Both the position numbers and the translations under genes were made by a program. The notes under the pieces were generated by a model. That model saw only the letters and a list, made by a program, of their open reading frames with translations, searched no databases and was not told the origin of the DNA. A stretch of 53,673 nt of DNA from a virus, in IMG/VR virus record IMGVR_UViG_3300031111_000014, positions 1-53,673 of that record. One strand, given 5' to 3'. Positions within the stretch are counted from its first letter, which is position 1; each line of letters starts with the position of its first letter. Below are positions 1-53,673 of the stretch, piece by piece.

Positions 1-1
1 G

Positions 2-2470
2 GCCTGGAATGACGTAGCTGCCGCCCTGAGGCGCCACGGTCACGAAGTTGATAGTAACATCACAAAAATTCAGGCCTTTGCCGGGCAAATGCAGGCCGCC
101 ACTGGTCGGTCCGATGAGTTCATCGGCAAGGCCGTCCAGAGCTTCATTGACTACGGCCAGTCTGTAGACGAGGCCATGAAGACCACCCAGGTCGCCCTCG
201 ATTTGGCGGCTGGCGGTGGGATGAATCTGGCGAGTGCTACTGACCTGCTGGCTAAGGCCGCGGTCGGGTACACGTCTACGCTGTCGAGATATGGTATCAT
301 CATAGATGAGAACATCCCTAAGTCTGAGAAGTTTGCGGCTGCTATTGCACAGATAAATGAGCGGTTCGGCGGGGCGGCAGCAGCACAGGCCGATAACGTC
401 GCCACGAAGATATCACTGCTGACCGAACGATTTGGGGATCTCCAAGAGGAGATATTCACGCTGATATCCCCGGCGTTATTCTCGGGGCTGGAGAGCGCGA
501 TTGGCTTGGTGAACGGCCTGATCGGCATATTCACCGACGAATCGGTTGACCAGATTCGACAGGCCAACAAGGCATTCGAGGAGACCGCCGGGAACACTCT
601 GCGCATGGCGGACCGCTATGACGAGCTGGCGTCAAAGGAGAAGTTGACCAGCAAGGAGCAGGAGGAACTAAACCGGCTGCTCGAAGAGCTGGCAAAACTA
701 CAGCCGGGTATCGTCGAGAGATGGGACGCGATGGGTAGGGCTATTGATATCTCCACCGATGCACTCAGGGATAACATCCGTGAACAGCGCACGATAAATC
801 AACTGGCAGAACAAGACGCCTTAAAGAAACTTGGCGACGCATACAAGGACAACTTGAGTGCCATCCGGGATAACATCGAGACAATCAAGAAGTATAGGGA
901 GGAATCATCGAGCGCCTTAACAGCTTTAAGTAATAAGAGTTTTGATTACCAAGGGGCCATTGAAAACCTGAGTGCCGAAATACAATCACTCAGGTACTCA
1001 CAAAAGCAATACGTGTCGGAAGCGTCTGGGTATTTCCCGGAGTTGGCGGCCGACACCGACCAGTATGCCTTCGCGGTGAGAATGCTCGGGGAGGATCTCG
1101 CTCGCATCGTGTTACTGCAGCAGACCTTGGGTAAGACCAGTATTGACTTGGATAGCGGTGCTGGTTTTGGCAAATTCCTGTCCGGCTTGACCTCGATGGT
1201 CTCGACTACCAGGGAGACCACTAGTCAAGTGGCTTCGCTCTTTGACCAGCTCGCGGCGCATGTCGAATTCGACGAGATCAACGACGAGTACGAGGACGCC
1301 CTTGTCGGGATGCAGCGTTCAACCGAGGAGCGCAATGAGCGGTTCAATGAGCTGTGGGCCGAACATCAGAATGTGCGGCGCAGCATAGAGGAGGCCGCAT
1401 TTCAGGCGTCCATTGCTGGCATGACGGATTATCATGCGACTGTCGCTACTCTCGAACACGACCGGGCGGCTGAGGAACGGGTTCTCCGCCAAGACCAGTA
1501 TTTGGGCGAGGAAGAACTCCAGGCCGCCCTGTACGATCTCGATGTCATCTATGGTCAGAGGCGCCAAGAACTACTCAACCGGCAGATAGAACAGTTCCAG
1601 GCGCAATGGTATGAGCGTTGGTCTATCCTGACCGAGCAAGTCTCGACCTTCTCCCACAACCTAACTCAGGTACTTATCACGGACAGCAACAACCTCCGGG
1701 ATATGATGCACGACACGTTCGAGCAGATCGGCCAGTCTATCGCTCACAACCTGGTCGACCGCGGGCTCAAGGCCATCTGGAAGTTCATTGCGGGACAGGC
1801 AGCGCAGCGGACTGCCACGATTTTATTGGGGGCAACCCAGAAAGCGCAGATGGTTGCCGAGACGGTGTCGACTACTACCCGACAGGCCCACACGAAAGCA
1901 ACAGCGATGGCCACCGCCATTACGGCATCTTTGACGGCGGCGACGGGGGCACTCACTGCGGCCTCTGGAGTGGCTGTTGCTGCTATGGGGGTTGAGTCTA
2001 TCGCCGTCAGGGCTCTCACGAAACATTACATTGCCCTGGCCTCGGCTAAGGCAGCCGCTACCCTCGGCATCTCTGCTGGGCCCTCCATTGCTGCCGCGGC
2101 TACCGTCAAGGCGTCGCTCACGGCCATGCTCACGGGATTTGACGACCCTATTAACGACTCGATCGCCTACCGGCACGGCCAGGACTACGCGAAGAACTTC
2201 ATCAAGGGTGCGCAATCGAGATTCGGGGCCCCTCAGTTCGGTATGGAAGTACGGTCGGGATTGTCCCGGGTGCCGTCGTCCAGTCAGTCGGCGCCAGCCC
2301 AAGGCAATACCTATATCACTGTTAGGGTCGAGGGCAACGTCGTGGCTGATGATACTTGGGTGCAGGAATCTCTTGTCCCCGCGATTGAGAGAGCATCCGG
2401 CACGGGACACAGTAGGGTCGCCCTGAAAAACGACAACAGGACCGGGCGTTCAGCCCTGAGGTTGAGGTAA
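2..2470 (+). CDS. Tape measure protein, C-terminal part (cut by the contig opening)
   Basis: Tail tape measure protein that sets tail length. The frame is open from base 2, before the first ATG at 89, and continues the gene starting at 53492; joined over the shared GGCCTGGAA it gives about 880 residues. The N-terminal half is helical and charged with coiled-coil-like stretches. About residues 595-690 of the ATG-89 frame are a long Ala/Thr-rich hydrophobic region, as in the membrane-active part of many tape measure proteins. It follows the major tail protein and frameshifted chaperone and precedes the distal tail protein, the canonical siphovirus order. The call rests on size, composition and position, not on a recognised catalytic motif. 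Confidence 0.85.
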   Translation, partial: AWNDVAAALRRHGHEVDSNITKIQAFAGQMQAATGRSDEFIGKAVQSFIDYGQSVDEAMKTTQVALDLAAGGGMNLASATDLLAKAAVGYTSTLSRYGIIIDENIPKSEKFAAAIAQINERFGGAAAAQADNVATKISLLTERFGDLQEEIFTLISPALFSGLESAIGLVNGLIGIFTDESVDQIRQANKAFEETAGNTLRMADRYDELASKEKLTSKEQEELNRLLEELAKLQPGIVERWDAMGRAIDISTDALRDNIREQRTINQLAEQDALKKLGDAYKDNLSAIRDNIETIKKYREESSSALTALSNKSFDYQGAIENLSAEIQSLRYSQKQYVSEASGYFPELAADTDQYAFAVRMLGEDLARIVLLQQTLGKTSIDLDSGAGFGKFLSGLTSMVSTTRETTSQVASLFDQLAAHVEFDEINDEYEDALVGMQRSTEERNERFNELWAEHQNVRRSIEEAAFQASIAGMTDYHATVATLEHDRAAEERVLRQDQYLGEEELQAALYDLDVIYGQRRQELLNRQIEQFQAQWYERWSILTEQVSTFSHNLTQVLITDSNNLRDMMHDTFEQIGQSIAHNLVDRGLKAIWKFIAGQAAQRTATILLGATQKAQMVAETVSTTTRQAHTKATAMATAITASLTAATGALTAASGVAVAAMGVESIAVRALTKHYIALASAKAAATLGISAGPSIAAAATVKASLTAMLTGFDDPINDSIAYRHGQDYAKNFIKGAQSRFGAPQFGMEVRSGLSRVPSSSQSAPAQGNTYITVRVEGNVVADDTWVQESLVPAIERASGTGHSRVALKNDNRTGRSALRLR

Positions 2471-17831: not shown

Positions 17832-18875
17832 CTACGCCCGCCCCATATCTACATACTTCATTATCGAAAACCTGTCGTGGCTTTCCTTTACCGCCTTAAC
17901 GTCGTGGCAGATATACCGTTGCGTAGTCCGAATATCCTGATGACCGAGTACCCGCCTAAGCATCTCTATGTCCATGCCGTTTTCGTGTAGGGCGGTCGCA
18001 CCGGATCGCCTGAGCATATGAGGATAGACCTTGAGCCCGACCTTCTTACCGGCCGCGACGACGATCTTCCTGATCCGGTCCTCGCTCATGGGATCTCCGT
18101 TCTTGTAGCAGATAAGCCGATCCCCGGCCCGTTTGTCCCTGTATTTCAGCCGCCAATGGTGTATCGCCTCGGCCGTCCGGGGTGAAATCGGGACCAGCCG
18201 CTCCCTCCTGGACTTGCCCCTGACGACGAGCAGGCGGTCCAATATCCGGCAATCGTCCACGGTCAAATTGATTATCTCGCCAACCCGCAAACAGGCGTCC
18301 AACATTAATAGGGACGCCAAGTGGTCCCGGTATCCAGTGAACCGACGCCGGTTGAACTGTTGTAGGAACGTGCCTATCTGGATGGGCTTCAACACCGGCA
18401 TGATCCGCTGCTCTACCGACATCAGGTGGACTCTCTCCATCGGGTTGTGATCTATCAGGTCTTCCGAGGCGAGGTAGTTGTAGAAGACTCGGAACACGCG
18501 GATTCTACCGTTGACGGTTTCCGGCGATACGTGACCAATGATGGACACCAAATAGCTTTGAATGTGAGATTGTTGGATTACCCCGAGATGGATTCCCGAG
18601 AGCAGACAGAACCGCATCAGGTAACGTAGCCTATCGGCGTAACACTTCAAGGTCCGCCGTCTTAACCCCTTGAGTTGACAGTGCAGATAAAACGATTCCA
18701 GCAATTCCCGATCTGAATATCCCGTTGTATAATTCCCCCGAGGCTTCTCCACGATGCTTCTGGTGCTCTCAGTATAGGAAGAGCTCCCGGTCTGCGCAAG
18801 GGAAAAGAGGACCCGCCAAGAGGTATTTACGGTGTTCTTTGTCCGGTTAAGGTCGCCGACGTACTGGGGGTCCAT
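17832..18875 (-). CDS. int: Tyrosine-type integrase
   Basis: 347 residues. Site-specific recombinase for phage integration and excision. N-terminal SAM-like core-binding domain about 52-150, catalytic domain 160-340 with the full set of active residues: R197 (ACLRVGE), K221 (GKSRRERLVP), H286 and R289 (HMLRR), H312 (LGHQD) and the nucleophile Y321 (TTQRYICHD). XerC/D-like. GGAGG lies 6 bases before the start. A perfect-consensus promoter faces it. The likely attP (tRNA fragment) is about 550 bases away across the regulator. Confidence 0.95.
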   Translation of the reverse strand: MDPQYVGDLNRTKNTVNTSWRVLFSLAQTGSSSYTESTRSIVEKPRGNYTTGYSDRELLESFYLHCQLKGLRRRTLKCYADRLRYLMRFCLLSGIHLGVIQQSHIQSYLVSIIGHVSPETVNGRIRVFRVFYNYLASEDLIDHNPMERVHLMSVEQRIMPVLKPIQIGTFLQQFNRRRFTGYRDHLASLLMLDACLRVGEIINLTVDDCRILDRLLVVRGKSRRERLVPISPRTAEAIHHWRLKYRDKRAGDRLICYKNGDPMSEDRIRKIVVAAGKKVGLKVYPHMLRRSGATALHENGMDIEMLRRVLGHQDIRTTQRYICHDVKAVKESHDRFSIMKYVDMGRA

Positions 18876-18922: not shown

Positions 18923-18950
18923 ATTATATACGAAAAAAACTTTCTGTCAA
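18923..18950 (-). promoter_or_regulatory. Consensus sigma70-type promoter for the integrase
   Basis: Read on the minus strand: TTGACA (18950-18945), 16-base spacer, TATAAT (18928-18923). Both hexamers are perfect. Transcription would start near 18915, about 40 bases before the integrase start codon. Confidence 0.8.
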
Positions 18951-18953
18951 TAG

Positions 18954-19042
18954 TTCTTTTGTTACATTGACTTACGGAAATTTTGGTTCTTGGGCCGGAA
19001 AAAACTCAACTTTTTGCTTGACAGGGATTAAACTTTTGGTTA
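18954..19042 (+). promoter_or_regulatory. Four operator-like repeats in the lysogeny control region
   Basis: Similar 12-base segments at 18954 (TTCTTTTGTTAC), 18979 (AATTTTGGTTCT), 19008 (AACTTTTTGCTT) and 19031 (AACTTTTGGTTA), spaced 23-29 bases. They lie between the divergent promoters, where repressor operators would be expected. The region is AT-rich, so chance similarity is possible. Confidence 0.35.
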
Positions 19043-19046
19043 CTTT
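19018..19046 (+). promoter_or_regulatory. Promoter for the HTH regulator
   Basis: TTGACA (19018-19023), 17-base spacer, TACTTT (19041-19046). It faces the regulator gene and is divergent from the integrase promoter. Confidence 0.55.
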
Positions 19047-19101: not shown

Positions 19102-19350
19102 ATGGCCTCATCCCTGGAGTTCTCAGGGAAGAAGCTGGACGACCTCATTAAACAGAGAGGTTGGACAGTGCCCCGGTTCGCCCAACTCCTTGCAATGGCT
19201 TCGCCTCAGTACAAGGCCACAACGGTGTCTATATACCGTTGGATTCGTGGTGACAGGACGCCGGAAATGAACTACCTCCCGGCCCTGAAACTGGTACTTG
19301 GGTTGAAAGACCCCGTGGCGGAGCTTTTCGAGGAGCGGCAGGTGAACTGA
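19102..19350 (+). CDS. Small HTH transcriptional regulator (Cro/CI-like)
   Basis: 82 residues from ATG 19102. An earlier in-frame ATG at 19057 lies too close to the promoter and has no ribosome site, and the frame further upstream runs through the promoters. Residues about 7-60 form an XRE-type helix-turn-helix (LDDLIKQRGWTVPRFAQLL, then SIYRWIRGDRTPE). No dimerisation or cleavage domain is present, so it is Cro-like or a minimal repressor. Divergent from the integrase, it is the probable lysogeny switch protein. Its stop overlaps the HNH ORF start (TGATG). Confidence 0.7.
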   Translation: MASSLEFSGKKLDDLIKQRGWTVPRFAQLLAMASPQYKATTVSIYRWIRGDRTPEMNYLPALKLVLGLKDPVAELFEERQVN

Positions 19351-20033
19351 TGTCAGCCGCCCTTGACAACACCCCGTCGACTCCGCGTATTTGCGGAAGT
19401 CCTTGCACGTCAAGGGTTGGACGGGCCACCGTAGCTCAGTTGGTAGAGCAGCTGATTCGTAATCAGAGTCCCTGCTCCCCCCGCTCCTCGACGACACCAC
19501 AACCACTTAGTCTGACGCCCCACGTCCTCACCGAGGGCAATCACAAGGCCCATCAGTTATCCCTAGAACTCACAAATCCAAACCAATCGGTCACATTTCG
19601 TCGGTGTCGAAAGTGCGGTAATGTCAAGCCGTTAGCAGCATTCTATCGAGACAAAAACAGTATTGGGGGGCACCGCTGGAACTGCAAAGAGTGTCATCGC
19701 CGACAGATGGTGGGCTATTATCGCGAGTACGCGGAGCGGCATCGAGCCGCCGTCTCTTCGTGGGCCGAAAGAAATCCAGAGCGGAAACAGGCGGTCAACG
19801 ATGCATATCGGCGAAGGCATCCAGATAGACAAGCGGCCCGGCGGCAGCTGCAGCGGGCCATCCGCGCTGGCCGCATATCCCGTGGTCCCTGTGCTGTCTG
19901 TGGCACGACGGTCGACATCCACGGGCACCACGAAGACTATAGTAAGCCCCTAGACGTGATATGGCTCTGCGGTAGACATCATCGGGAGTATCACGCGGGA
20001 CAAATCCAGATAGAACACAGGGAGGCGTCGTGA
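19350..20033 (+). CDS. HNH endonuclease; reading frame crosses the tRNA fragment
   Basis: 227 residues from ATG 19350, coupled to the regulator stop. Confident part starts near residue 80: zinc ribbon CRKCGNVKPLAAFY...CKEC, three 15-residue basic repeats beginning YYREYAERHR, then an HNH core CAVCG...DIHGHHEDYSKPLDVIWLCGRHHREYH. DNA endonuclease, possibly homing. Residues about 27-39 (VAQLVEQLIRNQ) are simply the translation of the tRNA-Thr fragment. There is no in-frame ATG or GTG between that fragment and the zinc ribbon, so either this fused frame is used or the gene lost its own start. Confidence 0.65.
   Translation: MSAALDNTPSTPRICGSPCTSRVGRATVAQLVEQLIRNQSPCSPRSSTTPQPLSLTPHVLTEGNHKAHQLSLELTNPNQSVTFRRCRKCGNVKPLAAFYRDKNSIGGHRWNCKECHRRQMVGYYREYAERHRAAVSSWAERNPERKQAVNDAYRRRHPDRQAARRQLQRAIRAGRISRGPCAVCGTTVDIHGHHEDYSKPLDVIWLCGRHHREYHAGQIQIEHREAS
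19363..19393 (+). promoter_or_regulatory. Possible tRNA promoter carried by the phage
   Basis: TTGACA (19363-19368), 19-base spacer, TATTTG (19388-19393); start would fall near 19400, about 25 bases before the tRNA 5' end. The spacing is long. If real, it could drive the tRNA rebuilt by integration. Confidence 0.35.
19425..19467 (+). other. 5' half of tRNA-Thr(CGT): probable attP core
   Basis: Acceptor 5' strand GCCACCG, T8-A9, full D-arm GCTCAGTTGGTAGAGC, anticodon arm with loop TTCGTAA (anticodon CGT at 19458-19460), through position 43. After 19467 no variable loop, T-arm or matching acceptor strand (CGGTGGC) follows, so it is not a complete tRNA. Adjacent to a tyrosine integrase, it most likely is the identity segment where the phage recombines with a host tRNA-Thr gene, replacing the 5' half. 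thrW-type genes are known integration targets. Confidence 0.7.
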
Positions 20034-20559: not shown

Positions 20560-20598
20560 ATTGAAATTTAGCGACTATTCGATATGGGGAGATTTGCG

Positions 20599-21162
20599 GT
20601 GAAGTATTACAAGGTGCTCAACGAATACGGTGGAGCGTGTCACGGCGGGTCGGGCAAGTGGTTACTACCGGACGGTGACACGCCCGGCGGGTGGATGCCG
20701 CGTATCAAACAAGTTATCCCCTGTAAACGCGGTTATCACCTGTGTCGCAGGGGCGATCTTGTGGTGTGGTTGGGGCCAACGATTTATCTGGCTGAAGGCC
20801 GAGGCGAGAAGGTAGTAGGTGACGATAAGGTGGTTTTTGCGGAAGCGCGGCTCATTCGCAAATTCAACACATGGGACGATAGAACGAAACGACTATTTGC
20901 TGCCGATTGTGCTTTTCATGTTCTCCATTTCTATGAAGAGCGCCACCCCAAAGATGACCGCCCCCGCAAAGCCATTGAGGCGGTCCGGCAATTCGCCAAT
21001 GGACTAATTAGCCGCCAACAACTGTCCGCCGCTAGGGCCGCCGCTAGGGTCGCCGCTTGGGACGCTGAGGGCGCCGCTAGGGCCGCCGAGCGTGAATGGC
21101 AAACGCGGAGGTTATTTGAATACCTGAACGGTAAAACGAAATTTAGCGATGCCTTGATATAA
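20599..21162 (+). CDS. Phage protein of unknown function (DUF7666-like)
   Basis: 187 residues from GTG 20599, preceded by GGGGAG at good spacing; the in-frame ATG 20584 overlaps that site. N-terminal region KYYKVLNEYGGACHGGSGKW...CKRGYHLCRRGDLVVWLGPTIYLAEGRG resembles a family of phage proteins often followed by an Ala-rich helical tail; here the tail has imperfect repeats of AARAA/RVAAWDAEGAARAA. Function unknown. Confidence 0.6.
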   Translation: MKYYKVLNEYGGACHGGSGKWLLPDGDTPGGWMPRIKQVIPCKRGYHLCRRGDLVVWLGPTIYLAEGRGEKVVGDDKVVFAEARLIRKFNTWDDRTKRLFAADCAFHVLHFYEERHPKDDRPRKAIEAVRQFANGLISRQQLSAARAAARVAAWDAEGAARAAEREWQTRRLFEYLNGKTKFSDALI

Positions 21163-33577: not shown

Positions 33578-34396
33578 ATGGTAGAGATCGAAAAAGACGT
33601 ACCGCTCCTCCGCACGACGTTAACCATCCGGGCGGTCGAGAATAAAATCCAGCAGTTATTCGATTCGAAGGTGATCGGCGGGACCGTGCACCTGTCTATC
33701 GGGCAGGAGGTGATCGACGCCTCGATTATTGGGGCATACGACAACCCCCTGGTCTTCGGCAACCACAGGTCGCACGGCCAGTATATTGCGGCCACCGGCG
33801 ACGTTCGCGGCCTGTTCGAGCAGGTCTTCTCCGGCATGTCTCAGCATCTGTACTACCCCGATAAGTTCCTGTCTCACGGGATTCAGGGCTCTCTAGTCCC
33901 TGTCGCATTCGGCGCGGCAATGGCGTTCAAGCAGAGGGGGCTTGATCGCCGTGTTATTTGTTTCATCGGTGACGGGACGCTCGGGCAGGGCGTGGTCTAC
34001 GAGACGCTCAACCTGATGGGGCGGTATAACCCGCGTATGACATTGATTGTGATCGATAACAGGTACTCTATGGCGGAGACACGGCAAGGGTTGGAGGGTT
34101 GGGGCTCGCCCGTATTCCCTGAGGTCTTTGAGGTTACCCAGTATTTCGGCGACGTGAGGGGCTTCCCTGAATATACTGACTCCGATATTGCTGTCTTTGC
34201 CGCATCGCGTCTCTGCGGCCATTCCTGCAACGATACGCAAATGTACCGGCCCAAAGAGGAGCGAACGCCGGGGTGGGTAGCCCAAAACGACCCCCTGCAG
34301 GTATTTCTCGAGGACCCGATGCTTGAGGGGTTACGCCGACAGATCGAAACCGAAGTTGAGGAAATAGCCAATGACGTACAGAAACGCCATCAATAA
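33578..34396 (+). CDS. Thiamine-diphosphate dehydrogenase E1, alpha subunit
   Basis: 272 residues. E1-alpha of the 2-oxo acid dehydrogenase type. Visible: HRSHGQYIA (63-71, matching the conserved H in HRTHGH), GIQGSLVPVAFGAA (101-114), thiamine-diphosphate motif GDG (131-133) ... N161 at the usual spacing, and CGHSCNDTQMYR (213-224), the active-site loop. Shorter than typical cellular E1-alpha (over 320) but all cofactor residues present. Decarboxylates a 2-oxo acid or makes a related transfer with the beta subunit encoded next (26-base overlap). Substrate unknown; very unusual in a phage. Confidence 0.85.
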   Translation: MVEIEKDVPLLRTTLTIRAVENKIQQLFDSKVIGGTVHLSIGQEVIDASIIGAYDNPLVFGNHRSHGQYIAATGDVRGLFEQVFSGMSQHLYYPDKFLSHGIQGSLVPVAFGAAMAFKQRGLDRRVICFIGDGTLGQGVVYETLNLMGRYNPRMTLIVIDNRYSMAETRQGLEGWGSPVFPEVFEVTQYFGDVRGFPEYTDSDIAVFAASRLCGHSCNDTQMYRPKEERTPGWVAQNDPLQVFLEDPMLEGLRRQIETEVEEIANDVQKRHQ

Positions 34397-34892
34397 GGCG
34401 TTGCGGGATCTCATGGCCGAGGACGGCCGTGTAATCCTGATCGGGCAGTCGATCCGGGACCCCTACGGTGGTGCCTGCAAGGTCACCCGGGGCCTAACCA
34501 AGCATTTCGACGGCCGGATATTCGACAGCCCAATATGCGAGGACGCCATGATCGGCTGGGCTATTGGCCTGTCACTGCAAGGCTACGTCCCGATTGTCGA
34601 GATCATGTTTGCCGATTTCCTGCCGCTTTGTATGAACCAGATATTCAACGTCGGCAAAGTTATACACCAGTACCACCAGCCCGTCAAGGTCGTGATCAGG
34701 ACTATGATCAACGGCGACAAGATGTACGGCCCGACCCATAGCCAGAGCATGGAGTATCTGCTGGGGACACCACAGGACGTGGTGCGCGGGCCGGACGTCG
34801 CCGGGATATACCGGCGGGCGGTCGAGGACAAAGATCACCCGGTGAACATCATCGTCGAGAATAAACAGATGTACGACAAGGAGGTGGAGTAG
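34371..34892 (+). CDS. Thiamine-diphosphate dehydrogenase E1, beta subunit (pyrimidine domain only)
   Basis: 173 residues. Matches the N-terminal half of E1-beta: FDSPICEDAMIGWAIGLSL with E57 as the Glu that activates the cofactor, VEIMFADFLPLCMNQIFN, and YGPTHSQSMEYLL. The C-terminal transketolase-C domain (another 150 or so residues in cellular E1-beta) is absent, and the gene ends cleanly, so this is a minimal version or a truncated one. The missing domain normally helps bind E2, so the pair may work without a dihydrolipoyl transferase. Confidence 0.85.
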   Translation: MTYRNAINKALRDLMAEDGRVILIGQSIRDPYGGACKVTRGLTKHFDGRIFDSPICEDAMIGWAIGLSLQGYVPIVEIMFADFLPLCMNQIFNVGKVIHQYHQPVKVVIRTMINGDKMYGPTHSQSMEYLLGTPQDVVRGPDVAGIYRRAVEDKDHPVNIIVENKQMYDKEVE

Positions 34893-35243
34893 ATGCCCGA
34901 CAGCAAAAGAACAATATGGCGGTGGGTGTGGCTTGTCCTTACGGTCGCGGTGGTCGCTATAATCATAGGGGTTGCCGTAAAAGGCATCTACGATCAGGAG
35001 GTCCTCAATTTCAGGGCGAGGGCGATAGACAAGGCTGTCGTTGTCAAAAAGATATTTATCGGAAGCCACCCAAAGATATTCGGATCTCGTCCAGCGACGT
35101 TTCGGTTAGTTCTGATTGGGGCCGATGGCGAGGGTAAGATCAGAATGACGGAGGATGTTCCCCGAGAGTTATTCTACGCGGCGGGGGTTGGCGATTCCAT
35201 AGATTTGGCTGATTATTCTATTTTCTGGAAGGCTGACAAATGA
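34893..35243 (+). CDS. Membrane-anchored hypothetical protein
   Basis: 116 residues starting directly after the E1-beta stop. One N-terminal membrane helix (about 11-31, WVWLVLTVAVVAIIIGVAV), then a soluble beta domain (AVVVKKIFIGSHPKIF...YSIFWK). Overlaps the acyltransferase gene start (ATGA). Not recognised. Confidence 0.5.
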   Translation: MPDSKRTIWRWVWLVLTVAVVAIIIGVAVKGIYDQEVLNFRARAIDKAVVVKKIFIGSHPKIFGSRPATFRLVLIGADGEGKIRMTEDVPRELFYAAGVGDSIDLADYSIFWKADK

Positions 35244-35992
35244 AGCAGCTCATCATCATCGGTGCTGGCAAGGGCGCGGAGCTGGTACTCAAGTGGGTGG
35301 AGCGGTTTAACGAGTACGAATATAGAGTGTGGTCGGAGATATGGGGGCCATTCCCTCGAGGTGCAGGCTTTACTCCCGATCTAATCACGCCCGTTGGTAT
35401 CTTGGATGACTGCGAGGACCGGCACGGGCAAGAGATTATGGAGGTCCCCATAATCGGGGCAACCAACTATCTCAAAAGGCAGGAGTGTCTTTGTGGTCAG
35501 GCTGATTGCCTTGCGAATACTCGCCTGCCTAAATATCACCTGATCTGCTCGTCCTCCAATGTCCCCTTCCGCAAGAAGATCGCGGCCATGTACTCGGGTA
35601 AGTACCCCTTTCTCAATTCGATACGCTCCGAGCTGGCCGACGACATCAAGATCGGTGAGGGCAATATCATATTCCCTGGCGTCTCGACCGACTGGTTTAC
35701 CGAGATCGGCAGTCATAACGTCATGTCGACCGGCTGTGCAATCGCCCACCACAACAAGATCGGTGACTGCAACCTGTTCGGCCCGGGCTGCATGTTCTCG
35801 GGCTCGGTCACTATCGGCTCGGGTTGTCGGTTCGGCAGCCTGATCGTGGTAGAGCCCTGTGTGACAATCGGCGACGACTGCAACATAGCCTCGGGCAGCG
35901 TAATAGTCGGCGATGTCCCGTCCGGGACAAGCATCAAGGCTATACGCAACACCGGCCAGCCGATCTACCAGGGCGAAAGGAGGGTGCGGTGA
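35240..35992 (+). CDS. NeuD/PglD-like acyltransferase, left-handed beta-helix
   Basis: 250 residues. N-terminal Rossmann-like GAGKGAELV, then hexapeptide repeats forming a left-handed beta-helix (IGEGNIIFPGV, EIGSHNVMSTGCAI, KIGDCNLFGPGCMFSGSVTIG, TIGDDCNIASGSVIVGDV) with the probable catalytic His pair in AIAHHNKIG. This family O- or N-acetylates sugar nucleotides (e.g. NeuD, PglD) with acetyl-CoA. It sits behind the E1 genes, so the cassette may use or make an acyl donor; the middle (40-110) contains an extra Cys-rich insert. Confidence 0.75.
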   Translation: MKQLIIIGAGKGAELVLKWVERFNEYEYRVWSEIWGPFPRGAGFTPDLITPVGILDDCEDRHGQEIMEVPIIGATNYLKRQECLCGQADCLANTRLPKYHLICSSSNVPFRKKIAAMYSGKYPFLNSIRSELADDIKIGEGNIIFPGVSTDWFTEIGSHNVMSTGCAIAHHNKIGDCNLFGPGCMFSGSVTIGSGCRFGSLIVVEPCVTIGDDCNIASGSVIVGDVPSGTSIKAIRNTGQPIYQGERRVR

Positions 35993-53505: not shown

Positions 53506-53673
53506 CGAGCGGGTCCAGATCGTTGTCGATGCCAAGAACCAGGCAAAGGGCGTCCTTTCGAGCGTCAAAAACCAGGTCCTGGCCATCGGTGCGGCCTATC
53601 TCGGGTGGAAGGCGGTAACGGGTATCATCGGCAGTATTGTTGAGAAGGGCATGGAGTCCGAACAGGCCTGGAA
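53492..53673 (+). CDS. Tape measure protein, N-terminal part (cut by contig end)
   Basis: First 60 codons of the tape measure gene, from ATG 53492 (AAAGGAAAG upstream), beginning MATRNERVQIVVDAKNQAK, a common tape measure opening. Continues at base 2 of the window. A hydrophobic stretch (VLAIGAAYLGWKAVTGIIG) follows near residue 29. Confidence 0.85.
   Translation, partial: MATRNERVQIVVDAKNQAKGVLSSVKNQVLAIGAAYLGWKAVTGIIGSIVEKGMESEQAW

What the first reader, a model, noticed from the sequence alone, without database searches (positions are those of the whole stretch)
19363..19520. attP carries promoter plus 5' half of tRNA-Thr inside a coding frame
Most tRNA-targeting phages carry the 3' end of the tRNA. 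Here the 5' half through the anticodon arm is present, with a possible promoter upstream, so integration would rebuild the tRNA from phage 5' and host 3' halves. The segment lies within the open frame 19350-20033, so integration would cut the HNH frame from its ATG and leave it behind the host tRNA promoter: gene expression could differ between free and integrated states.
Basis: partly seen in the sequence, partly recalled or inferred. Interest (0 to 1): 0.72.

Follow-up and report, generated by a model that had tools for sequence, protein, structure and literature searches.

The report
Phage attP carrying tRNA 5' half
[quoted passage not shown] this is the reverse of the usual arrangement, is little described in bacteria, and turns up repeatedly in related phages.

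Summary
Window 19425-19466 is identical to bases 1-42 of tRNA-Thr(CGT). That 42-mer was found only in Candidatus Zixiibacteriota (11 loci; all diverge after base 42, nine already at base -1). The window is a complete circular phage genome, so this is an attP; the integrase lies 550 bp away. The phage's own prophage was not found. Relatives of its integrase do integrate this way: a 63.7-kb prophage in tRNA-Leu(TAG) has host 5' flank + tRNA 5' half at one end and phage DNA + intact tRNA at the other; an 87-kb element in a Zixibacterium does the same in tRNA-Gly(TCC). In another Zixibacterium a related integrase adjoins bases 1-41 of the same tRNA-Thr(CGT). On the integrase tree, 5'- and 3'-half use interchange at least three times, so which half is carried looks like an attP trait. 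The coding part is weaker: the frame is open and ATG 19350 has a ribosome-binding site, but 19350-19589 is not coding-like, and a stop-free frame is expected in 17% of shuffles. The upstream promoter is only suggestive. Precedent: archaeal pTN3-like integrases. A new variant of a known kind.

The parts
19425..19466 (+). attP core: bases 1-42 of tRNA-Thr(CGT)
   Evidence: exact match to 11 Zixibacteria loci; identity ends at base 42 in all
19456..19462 (+). anticodon loop TTCGTAA, predicted 7-bp crossover (overlap) region; flanking 10-bp arms match as inverted repeats 8/10 in host attB, 6/10 in attP
   Evidence: sequence symmetry; crossover position inferred from where identity ends and from tyrosine-recombinase precedent
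17832..18875 (-). tyrosine integrase, 347 aa, catalytic R197 K221 H286 R289 H312 Y321 present
   Evidence: Pfam PF00589 3.8e-32 and PF13495 6e-10, PHROG integrase, alignment A1
18923..18950 (-). consensus promoter TTGACA-16-TATAAT reading into the integrase
   Evidence: 12/12
19018..19046 (+). promoter-like TTGACA-17-TACTTT reading into the HTH gene and on to the tRNA half
   Evidence: 9/12; function inferred
19102..19350 (+). small HTH regulator (82 aa), ending TGATG over the next ATG
   Evidence: weak PHROG repressor matches 0.00095 and 0.005; codon score coding-like, 0.139
19363..19391 (+). weak promoter-like TTGACA-17-CGTATT 33 nt before tRNA base 1
   Evidence: 3% of random segments score as well
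19350..20033 (+). open frame whose 3' part (from about 19590) is an HNH / endonuclease VII-like zinc domain; attP lies in its 5' part
   Evidence: PHROG 2340 4.3e-29 on residues 84-218; 5' part not coding-like; no ATG/GTG/TTG between the core and 19707
19467..19590 (+). C-rich, G-poor segment (C 42%, G 15%) just 3' of the core; possible Rho-loading site or linker
   Evidence: top 0.03% of window positions for C minus G; function not tested

Best explanation
It is the attachment site (attP) of a temperate siphophage-like virus of Zixibacteria. The tyrosine integrase crosses over in the anticodon loop of the host tRNA-Thr(CGT). The phage carries the tRNA's 5' half instead of the usual 3' half. 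After integration, one end of the prophage (attL) would be host 5' flank + tRNA 5' half running into the HNH frame, and the other end (attR) would be integrase, HTH gene, phage 5' half and host 3' half: an intact tRNA now behind phage DNA. The tRNA must then be transcribed from a phage promoter, most likely the HTH promoter or a weak one at 19363. Shown: sequence identity and its limits, circular phage genome, intact integrase, the same arrangement in prophages with related integrases. Inferred: that this phage does it, the crossover position, the promoter, and any effect on HNH expression.
For: Exact 42/42 identity that starts at tRNA base 1 (base -1 with two hosts) and stops at base 42 with all 11 host loci, as expected if the 5' half is kept so that the tRNA is restored. 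The 42-mer is found only in Zixibacteria. The record closes to a circle: ends share 9 nt and the tape-measure ORF reads through as 880 aa, so the site is an attP inside a free phage genome. In-silico attR gives tRNA-Thr(cgt), in-silico attL gives none. Related integrases sit at real 5'-half sites: G134 (host tRNA array + tRNA-Leu(TAG) half + int; 63.7 kb away phage DNA + intact tRNA-Leu), G133 (half at both ends, 66.1 kb), Zixibacteria G091 (87 kb, tRNA-Gly), G070, G127 and G118 (the same tRNA-Thr(CGT)). The best-matching Zixibacterial integrases (up to 42% identity) lie next to tRNA genes.
Against: No prophage of this phage or a near relative was found; closest integrases are only about 40% identical and the nearest on the tree are 3'-half users. 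In the other 5'-half elements int follows the half on the 3' side; here int lies on the 5' side, facing away; only two unproven loci (L072, L185) share that layout. The promoter evidence is weak. In G118 the half and the intact tRNA are in an order that needs a later rearrangement.
Confidence: 0.87

Rival explanations
1. The half-tRNA is a relic: a scar of a past integration or imprecise excision, or a decayed phage tRNA gene, no longer used as attP.
For: No near relative or prophage with this site was found; phages often carry decaying tRNA genes (general knowledge).
Against: 42/42 identity with no decay; identity begins at tRNA base 1 with nine of 11 hosts and ends in the anticodon arm with all, as in the integrated 5'-half elements; an intact integrase lies 550 bp away.
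Confidence: 0.07
2. Integration at the anticodon loop breaks the host tRNA and the cell survives on another Thr tRNA (or the phage has its own), as in tRNA-dependent lysogeny; the 5' identity is incidental.
For: ACG might be read by tRNA-Thr(TGT) (general knowledge); tRNA-dependent lysogeny exists in mycobacteriophages (PMC10865867).
Against: The window carries no tRNA gene; tRNA-dependent phages share only about 10 bp with attB (PMC10865867), whereas this one shares all 42 bases needed to restore the tRNA.
Confidence: 0.03
3. The open frame 19350-20033 is a real HNH protein whose gene is switched by integration: full length in the free phage, start codon lost in the prophage. (This is an addition to the best explanation, not an alternative to the attP reading.)
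For: ATG 19350 has AGGTG 5 nt upstream and overlaps the HTH stop (TGATG); only one of three phases is open through the core; no in-frame ATG/GTG/TTG before 19707 other than a TTG in the D loop; in the 11 hosts no in-frame ATG or GTG replaces it.
Against: Codon score of 19350-19424 is -0.36 and of 19467-19589 -0.25, at or below the 2.5th percentile of phage coding; a stop-free frame arises in 17% of shuffles; the conserved domain begins only at about residue 80.
Confidence: 0.3

Closest known systems
Archaeal pTN3 / TKV4-type integrases (Thermococcales; PMC5495485, PMC8371274)
   Same: attB is the 5' half of a tRNA gene (41 bp shared by attP and attB in pTN3), crossover region includes the anticodon loop, the full-length tRNA is rebuilt but separated from its original promoter, and attP lies inside an open frame.
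   Different: There the interrupted frame is the integrase itself; here the integrase stays whole and the frame is an HNH-like ORF. Bacterial tailed phage, not an archaeal element.
Classical tRNA-targeting tyrosine integrases of bacteria, including 3'-half relatives found here (L064, L070, L075, L077)
   Same: Same integrase family, anticodon-arm crossover, restored tRNA.
   Different: They carry the 3' half, so the tRNA keeps its own promoter (PMC8371274 citing Williams 2002).
Moorella phage MTATph1 (OR602862.1; 176-kb active region flanked by tRNA genes in PMC11328732)
   Same: A 5' portion (about bases 1-54) of tRNA-Phe(GAA), annotated as a whole tRNA, directly before a related integrase.
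   Different: Int follows the half on its 3' side; different tRNA and host; recombination there not checked by us.
Integration-dependent immunity of mycobacteriophages (BPs; PMC4557955)
   Same: attP lies within an open frame next to int and a regulator, so integration changes a gene product.
   Different: There it truncates the repressor's C-terminus; here it would remove the 5' end of an HNH frame just downstream of the regulator.
tRNA-dependent lysogeny (PMC10865867)
   Same: Integration into a tRNA gene makes tRNA supply depend on the phage.
   Different: There the tRNA is not rebuilt and a complete phage tRNA replaces it.

Membership tests
Tyrosine-recombinase (Phage_integrase) family | catalytic domain with R-K-H-R-H-Y residues | tested here: met
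   PF00589 3.8e-32; residues in alignment A1
tRNA attachment site of the 5'-half type | attP shares the tRNA from base 1 to the anticodon arm and lacks the 3' half | tested here: met
tRNA attachment site of the 5'-half type | prophage junctions show host 5' half at one end and restored tRNA at the other | not testable with these tools
   no prophage of this phage found; met for relatives G134 and G091
tRNA attachment site of the 5'-half type | restored tRNA transcribed from an element promoter | tested here: inconclusive
   weak promoter-like sites only
pTN3-like suicidal integrase system | attP lies inside the integrase gene, which is split by integration | tested here: not met
   integrase 17832-18875 is 550 bp from the core and whole
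Integration-dependent immunity | attP within the repressor gene; prophage form is the active one | tested here: not met
   core lies 75 bp after the HTH stop codon, not within it
tRNA-dependent lysogeny | short core that breaks the tRNA plus a complete phage tRNA of the same isotype | tested here: not met
   42-bp core restores the tRNA; no tRNA gene in the window

The most novel reading that the evidence does not exclude
Integration acts as a switch. In the free phage one transcript runs from the HTH promoter through the tRNA half into HNH and the following early genes; integration cuts it at the core, so that the regulator is transcribed together with the rebuilt host tRNA, and the early genes are placed behind a host tRNA promoter with no proper start codon and a C-rich, Rho-prone leader. 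The host would then depend on prophage transcription for a tRNA.
Probability: 0.2. Interest if true: 0.78.

Novelty: new variant of a known kind. Interest (0 to 1): 0.58.

Why it matters
Almost all described tRNA-targeting phages carry the 3' half, which leaves the host promoter in charge of the tRNA. Here and in eleven related integrase loci the reverse holds, in several phage and bacterial lineages and for tRNAs Thr, Gly, Leu and Ala. Within one integrase family the side carried has changed at least three times, so sidedness looks like a property of attP and can switch. Such prophages would make the host tRNA depend on phage transcription, and automatic annotation misses or mislabels the site. 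The exact 5' half also points to an uncultured host phylum.

Tried and rejected
Single-sequence peptide scan of IMG/VR for the integrase: nothing; the alignment scan worked. Exact 42-mer in IMG/VR: none; a shorter pattern gave 8 contigs, all with complete tRNA-Thr genes. Terminase and portal scans for sister phages: only distant hits, no shared attP. HNH search of Zixibacteria: two partial domain hits. A first regular-expression scan for half tRNAs missed cases because its grouping was greedy and was replaced. Second copies of the tRNA in L185 and G108, which have the window's layout, were not found; both records are incomplete. Direct repeats as integrase arm sites: only chance-like pairs. 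G118 synteny to recover the original order: too rearranged. Williams 2002 is not held, so its list of bacterial 5'-half cases was not checked directly.

Full report
What is there. The window (an IMG/VR virus record) contains at 19425-19466 the sequence GCCACCGTAGCTCAGTTGGTAGAGCAGCTGATTCGTAATCAG. ARAGORN and Rfam see no tRNA in the window. A scan of 84,980 species genomes for the exact 42-mer gave 11 loci, all Candidatus Zixiibacteriota / GN15 assemblies (one is titled only 'bacterium isolate MAG50'); at ten of them ARAGORN calls tRNA-Thr(cgt), the copy in L003 being cut by the end of the locus. Side by side, identity is exactly bases 1-42 with nine of them and one base longer upstream with two; it never extends past base 42. 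All 11 hosts continue CAGGTC, the phage AGTCCC. The anticodon loop TTCGTAA (19456-19462) is flanked by 10-bp arms that match as inverted repeats in 8 of 10 positions in host attB and 6 of 10 in the phage, the usual shape of a tyrosine-recombinase core. The 42-mer is absent from other IMG/VR contigs; a shorter version finds only complete tRNA genes.

It is an attP in a free phage genome. The first and last 9 bases of the window are identical (GGCCTGGAA), and when they are overlapped the tape-measure ORF, split between the two ends, reads through as 880 aa: the record is a circularly permuted complete genome of 53,664 bp. The core lies inside it, with a tyrosine integrase on one side (17832-18875, minus strand; PF00589 3.8e-32, SAM-like N-terminal domain, catalytic residues present) and HNH, ATPase and methylase-like genes on the other. 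Between integrase and core are divergent promoters (a 12/12 consensus at 18950-18923 for int, TTGACA-17-TACTTT at 19018-19046 for the other strand) and an 82-aa HTH protein (19102-19350; weak repressor matches).

Relatives show how it works. No prophage of this phage was found, and scans with its terminase and portal found only distant relatives. But 22 of 132 Zixibacteria genomes have integrases related to it at E <= 1e-30 (up to 42% identity). With 80 IMG/VR integrase loci, 108 integrase loci were scanned for whole and half tRNAs (control: ten chance 5' halves at score 12-13 and one 3' half in three shuffles of about 0.8 Mb). Where both ends are visible, most Zixibacteria elements are of the ordinary kind, with a 3' half at the far end (L064 and L070 tRNA-Arg bases 27/28 to the end; L075 tRNA-Phe; L077 tRNA-Arg). 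Eleven loci instead have int next to a 5' half with no 3' half: L066 and L063 (tRNA-Gly TCC), L073 (Leu TAG), L074 (Thr CGT) in Zixibacteria; L144, L152, L158, L159, L160 (Leu), L164 (Ala; score only 12) and L222 (Thr CGT) in viral contigs.

Complete 5'-half prophages. In G134 (IMG/VR 3300033752_000161) a host array of tRNA genes ends in the 5' half of tRNA-Leu(TAG) followed by phage DNA with int; 63.7 kb further on, phage DNA leads into an intact tRNA-Leu(TAG). In G133 the 5' half of tRNA-Leu(CAG) stands at both ends of a 66.1-kb record. In the Zixibacterium G091 the tRNA-Gly(TCC) half plus int and the intact tRNA-Gly lie 87 kb apart on one strand in the expected order. In G070 contigs end and begin at the tRNA-Gly half, as expected for a repeat. 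In G118 bases 1-41 of the very same tRNA-Thr(CGT) stand between a 5' flank conserved with G117 (82% over 1.9 kb) and an integrase 34 bp away, while the intact tRNA-Thr is 25.6 kb off with an unrelated 5' flank. The order there needs a later rearrangement; pTN3 integrase is known to invert DNA between tRNA genes (PMC5495485), but this was not shown for G118. An isolated phage, Moorella MTATph1, also has a 5' portion of tRNA-Phe before its integrase, annotated as a whole tRNA; a paper on Moorella strains reports an active 176-kb region flanked by tRNA genes in DSM 103132, the host named in that record (PMC11328732).

Tree. In a maximum-likelihood tree of 37 integrases the 5'-half label needs five changes, at least three forced by well-supported branches. 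The window's integrase groups with 3'-half users, on a long branch whose place is unsure. The half carried therefore appears to be a property of attP that can switch within one integrase family. Most 3' labels rest on an intact tRNA directly before int, not on both ends seen.

How it most likely works (inferred for this phage). Crossover in the anticodon loop gives attL = host 5' flank + tRNA 5' half + HNH side, and attR = int, HTH, phage 5' half + host 3' half. Joined in silico, the second gives tRNA-Thr(cgt) with ten of 11 hosts (the eleventh locus is truncated) and the first gives none. The rebuilt tRNA would depend on phage transcription. Candidate promoters are the HTH promoter and TTGACA-17-CGTATT at 19363-19391; the latter is matched by 3% of random window segments, although native host upstream regions score much the same in the scan (7 to 9.5, against 9). 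What differs from the other 5'-half relatives is that int lies on the 5' side of the core, pointing away; L072 and L185 share that layout but are incomplete.

The coding frame. ORF 19350-20033 is open through the core, and only one of three phases is. ATG 19350 has AGGTG 5 nt upstream and overlaps the HTH stop. Against this, codon scores of 19350-19424 (-0.36) and 19467-19589 (-0.25) lie at or below the 2.5th percentile of phage coding stretches, a stop-free frame is expected by chance in 17% of shuffles, and the HNH / endonuclease VII-like domain begins near residue 80. After integration no in-frame ATG or GTG would precede the domain in any of the 11 hosts; only TTG 19440 in the D loop and a few host TTGs remain. 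The segment just 3' of the core is among the most C-rich, G-poor of the genome, which might load Rho; untested.

Known or new. A review states that with few exceptions restored bacterial tRNA genes keep their promoter, that pTN3-like archaeal integrases use the 5' half, and that this was seldom seen in bacteria (PMC8371274 citing Williams 2002). pTN3 shares 41 bp and separates the tRNA from its original promoter (PMC5495485). The kind is thus known but rare; its repeated occurrence in bacterial phages of one integrase family, with switching of side, I did not find described in the open-access library searched, which lacks most subscription papers. Hence a new variant of a known kind, interest 0.58.

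Noticed in passing
L252 1787-1872 (OR602862.1 95097-95182): Moorella phage MTATph1: the annotated 86-nt tRNA-Phe is not a complete tRNA; it is about bases 1-54 of tRNA-Phe(GAA) before the integrase, a likely 5'-half attP in a phage with a cultured host.
   Followed up: partly
L114 9917-9990 and L115 15636-15676 (G118:C1 430116 and 455736): tRNA-Thr(CGT) half with int and the intact tRNA are 25.6 kb apart in an order that simple integration does not give; possible integrase-made rearrangement.
   Followed up: partly
window 1-9 and 53665-53673: 9-nt terminal overlap and a tape-measure ORF that joins across it: the record is a complete circular permutation of 53,664 bp.
   Followed up: yes
L117 3-75 and 912-986 (G044:C255): Two intact tRNA-Thr(CGT) genes 0.9 kb apart, one with altered first bases; perhaps a tiny element or a duplication.
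   Followed up: no
window 19467-19590: Among the most C-rich, G-poor stretches of the + strand, directly 3' of the att core; Rho-loading candidate.
   Followed up: partly
window 20584-21162: ORF matching Pfam Imm5_like (2.5e-11) downstream of the HNH frame; possible immunity-like protein in the early region.
   Followed up: no
window 33578-35992: ORFs at 33578, 34371 and 35240 read like dehydrogenase E1 alpha and beta subunits and a sugar acetyltransferase: possible metabolic cargo in the phage (by eye from the translations, not searched).
   Followed up: no
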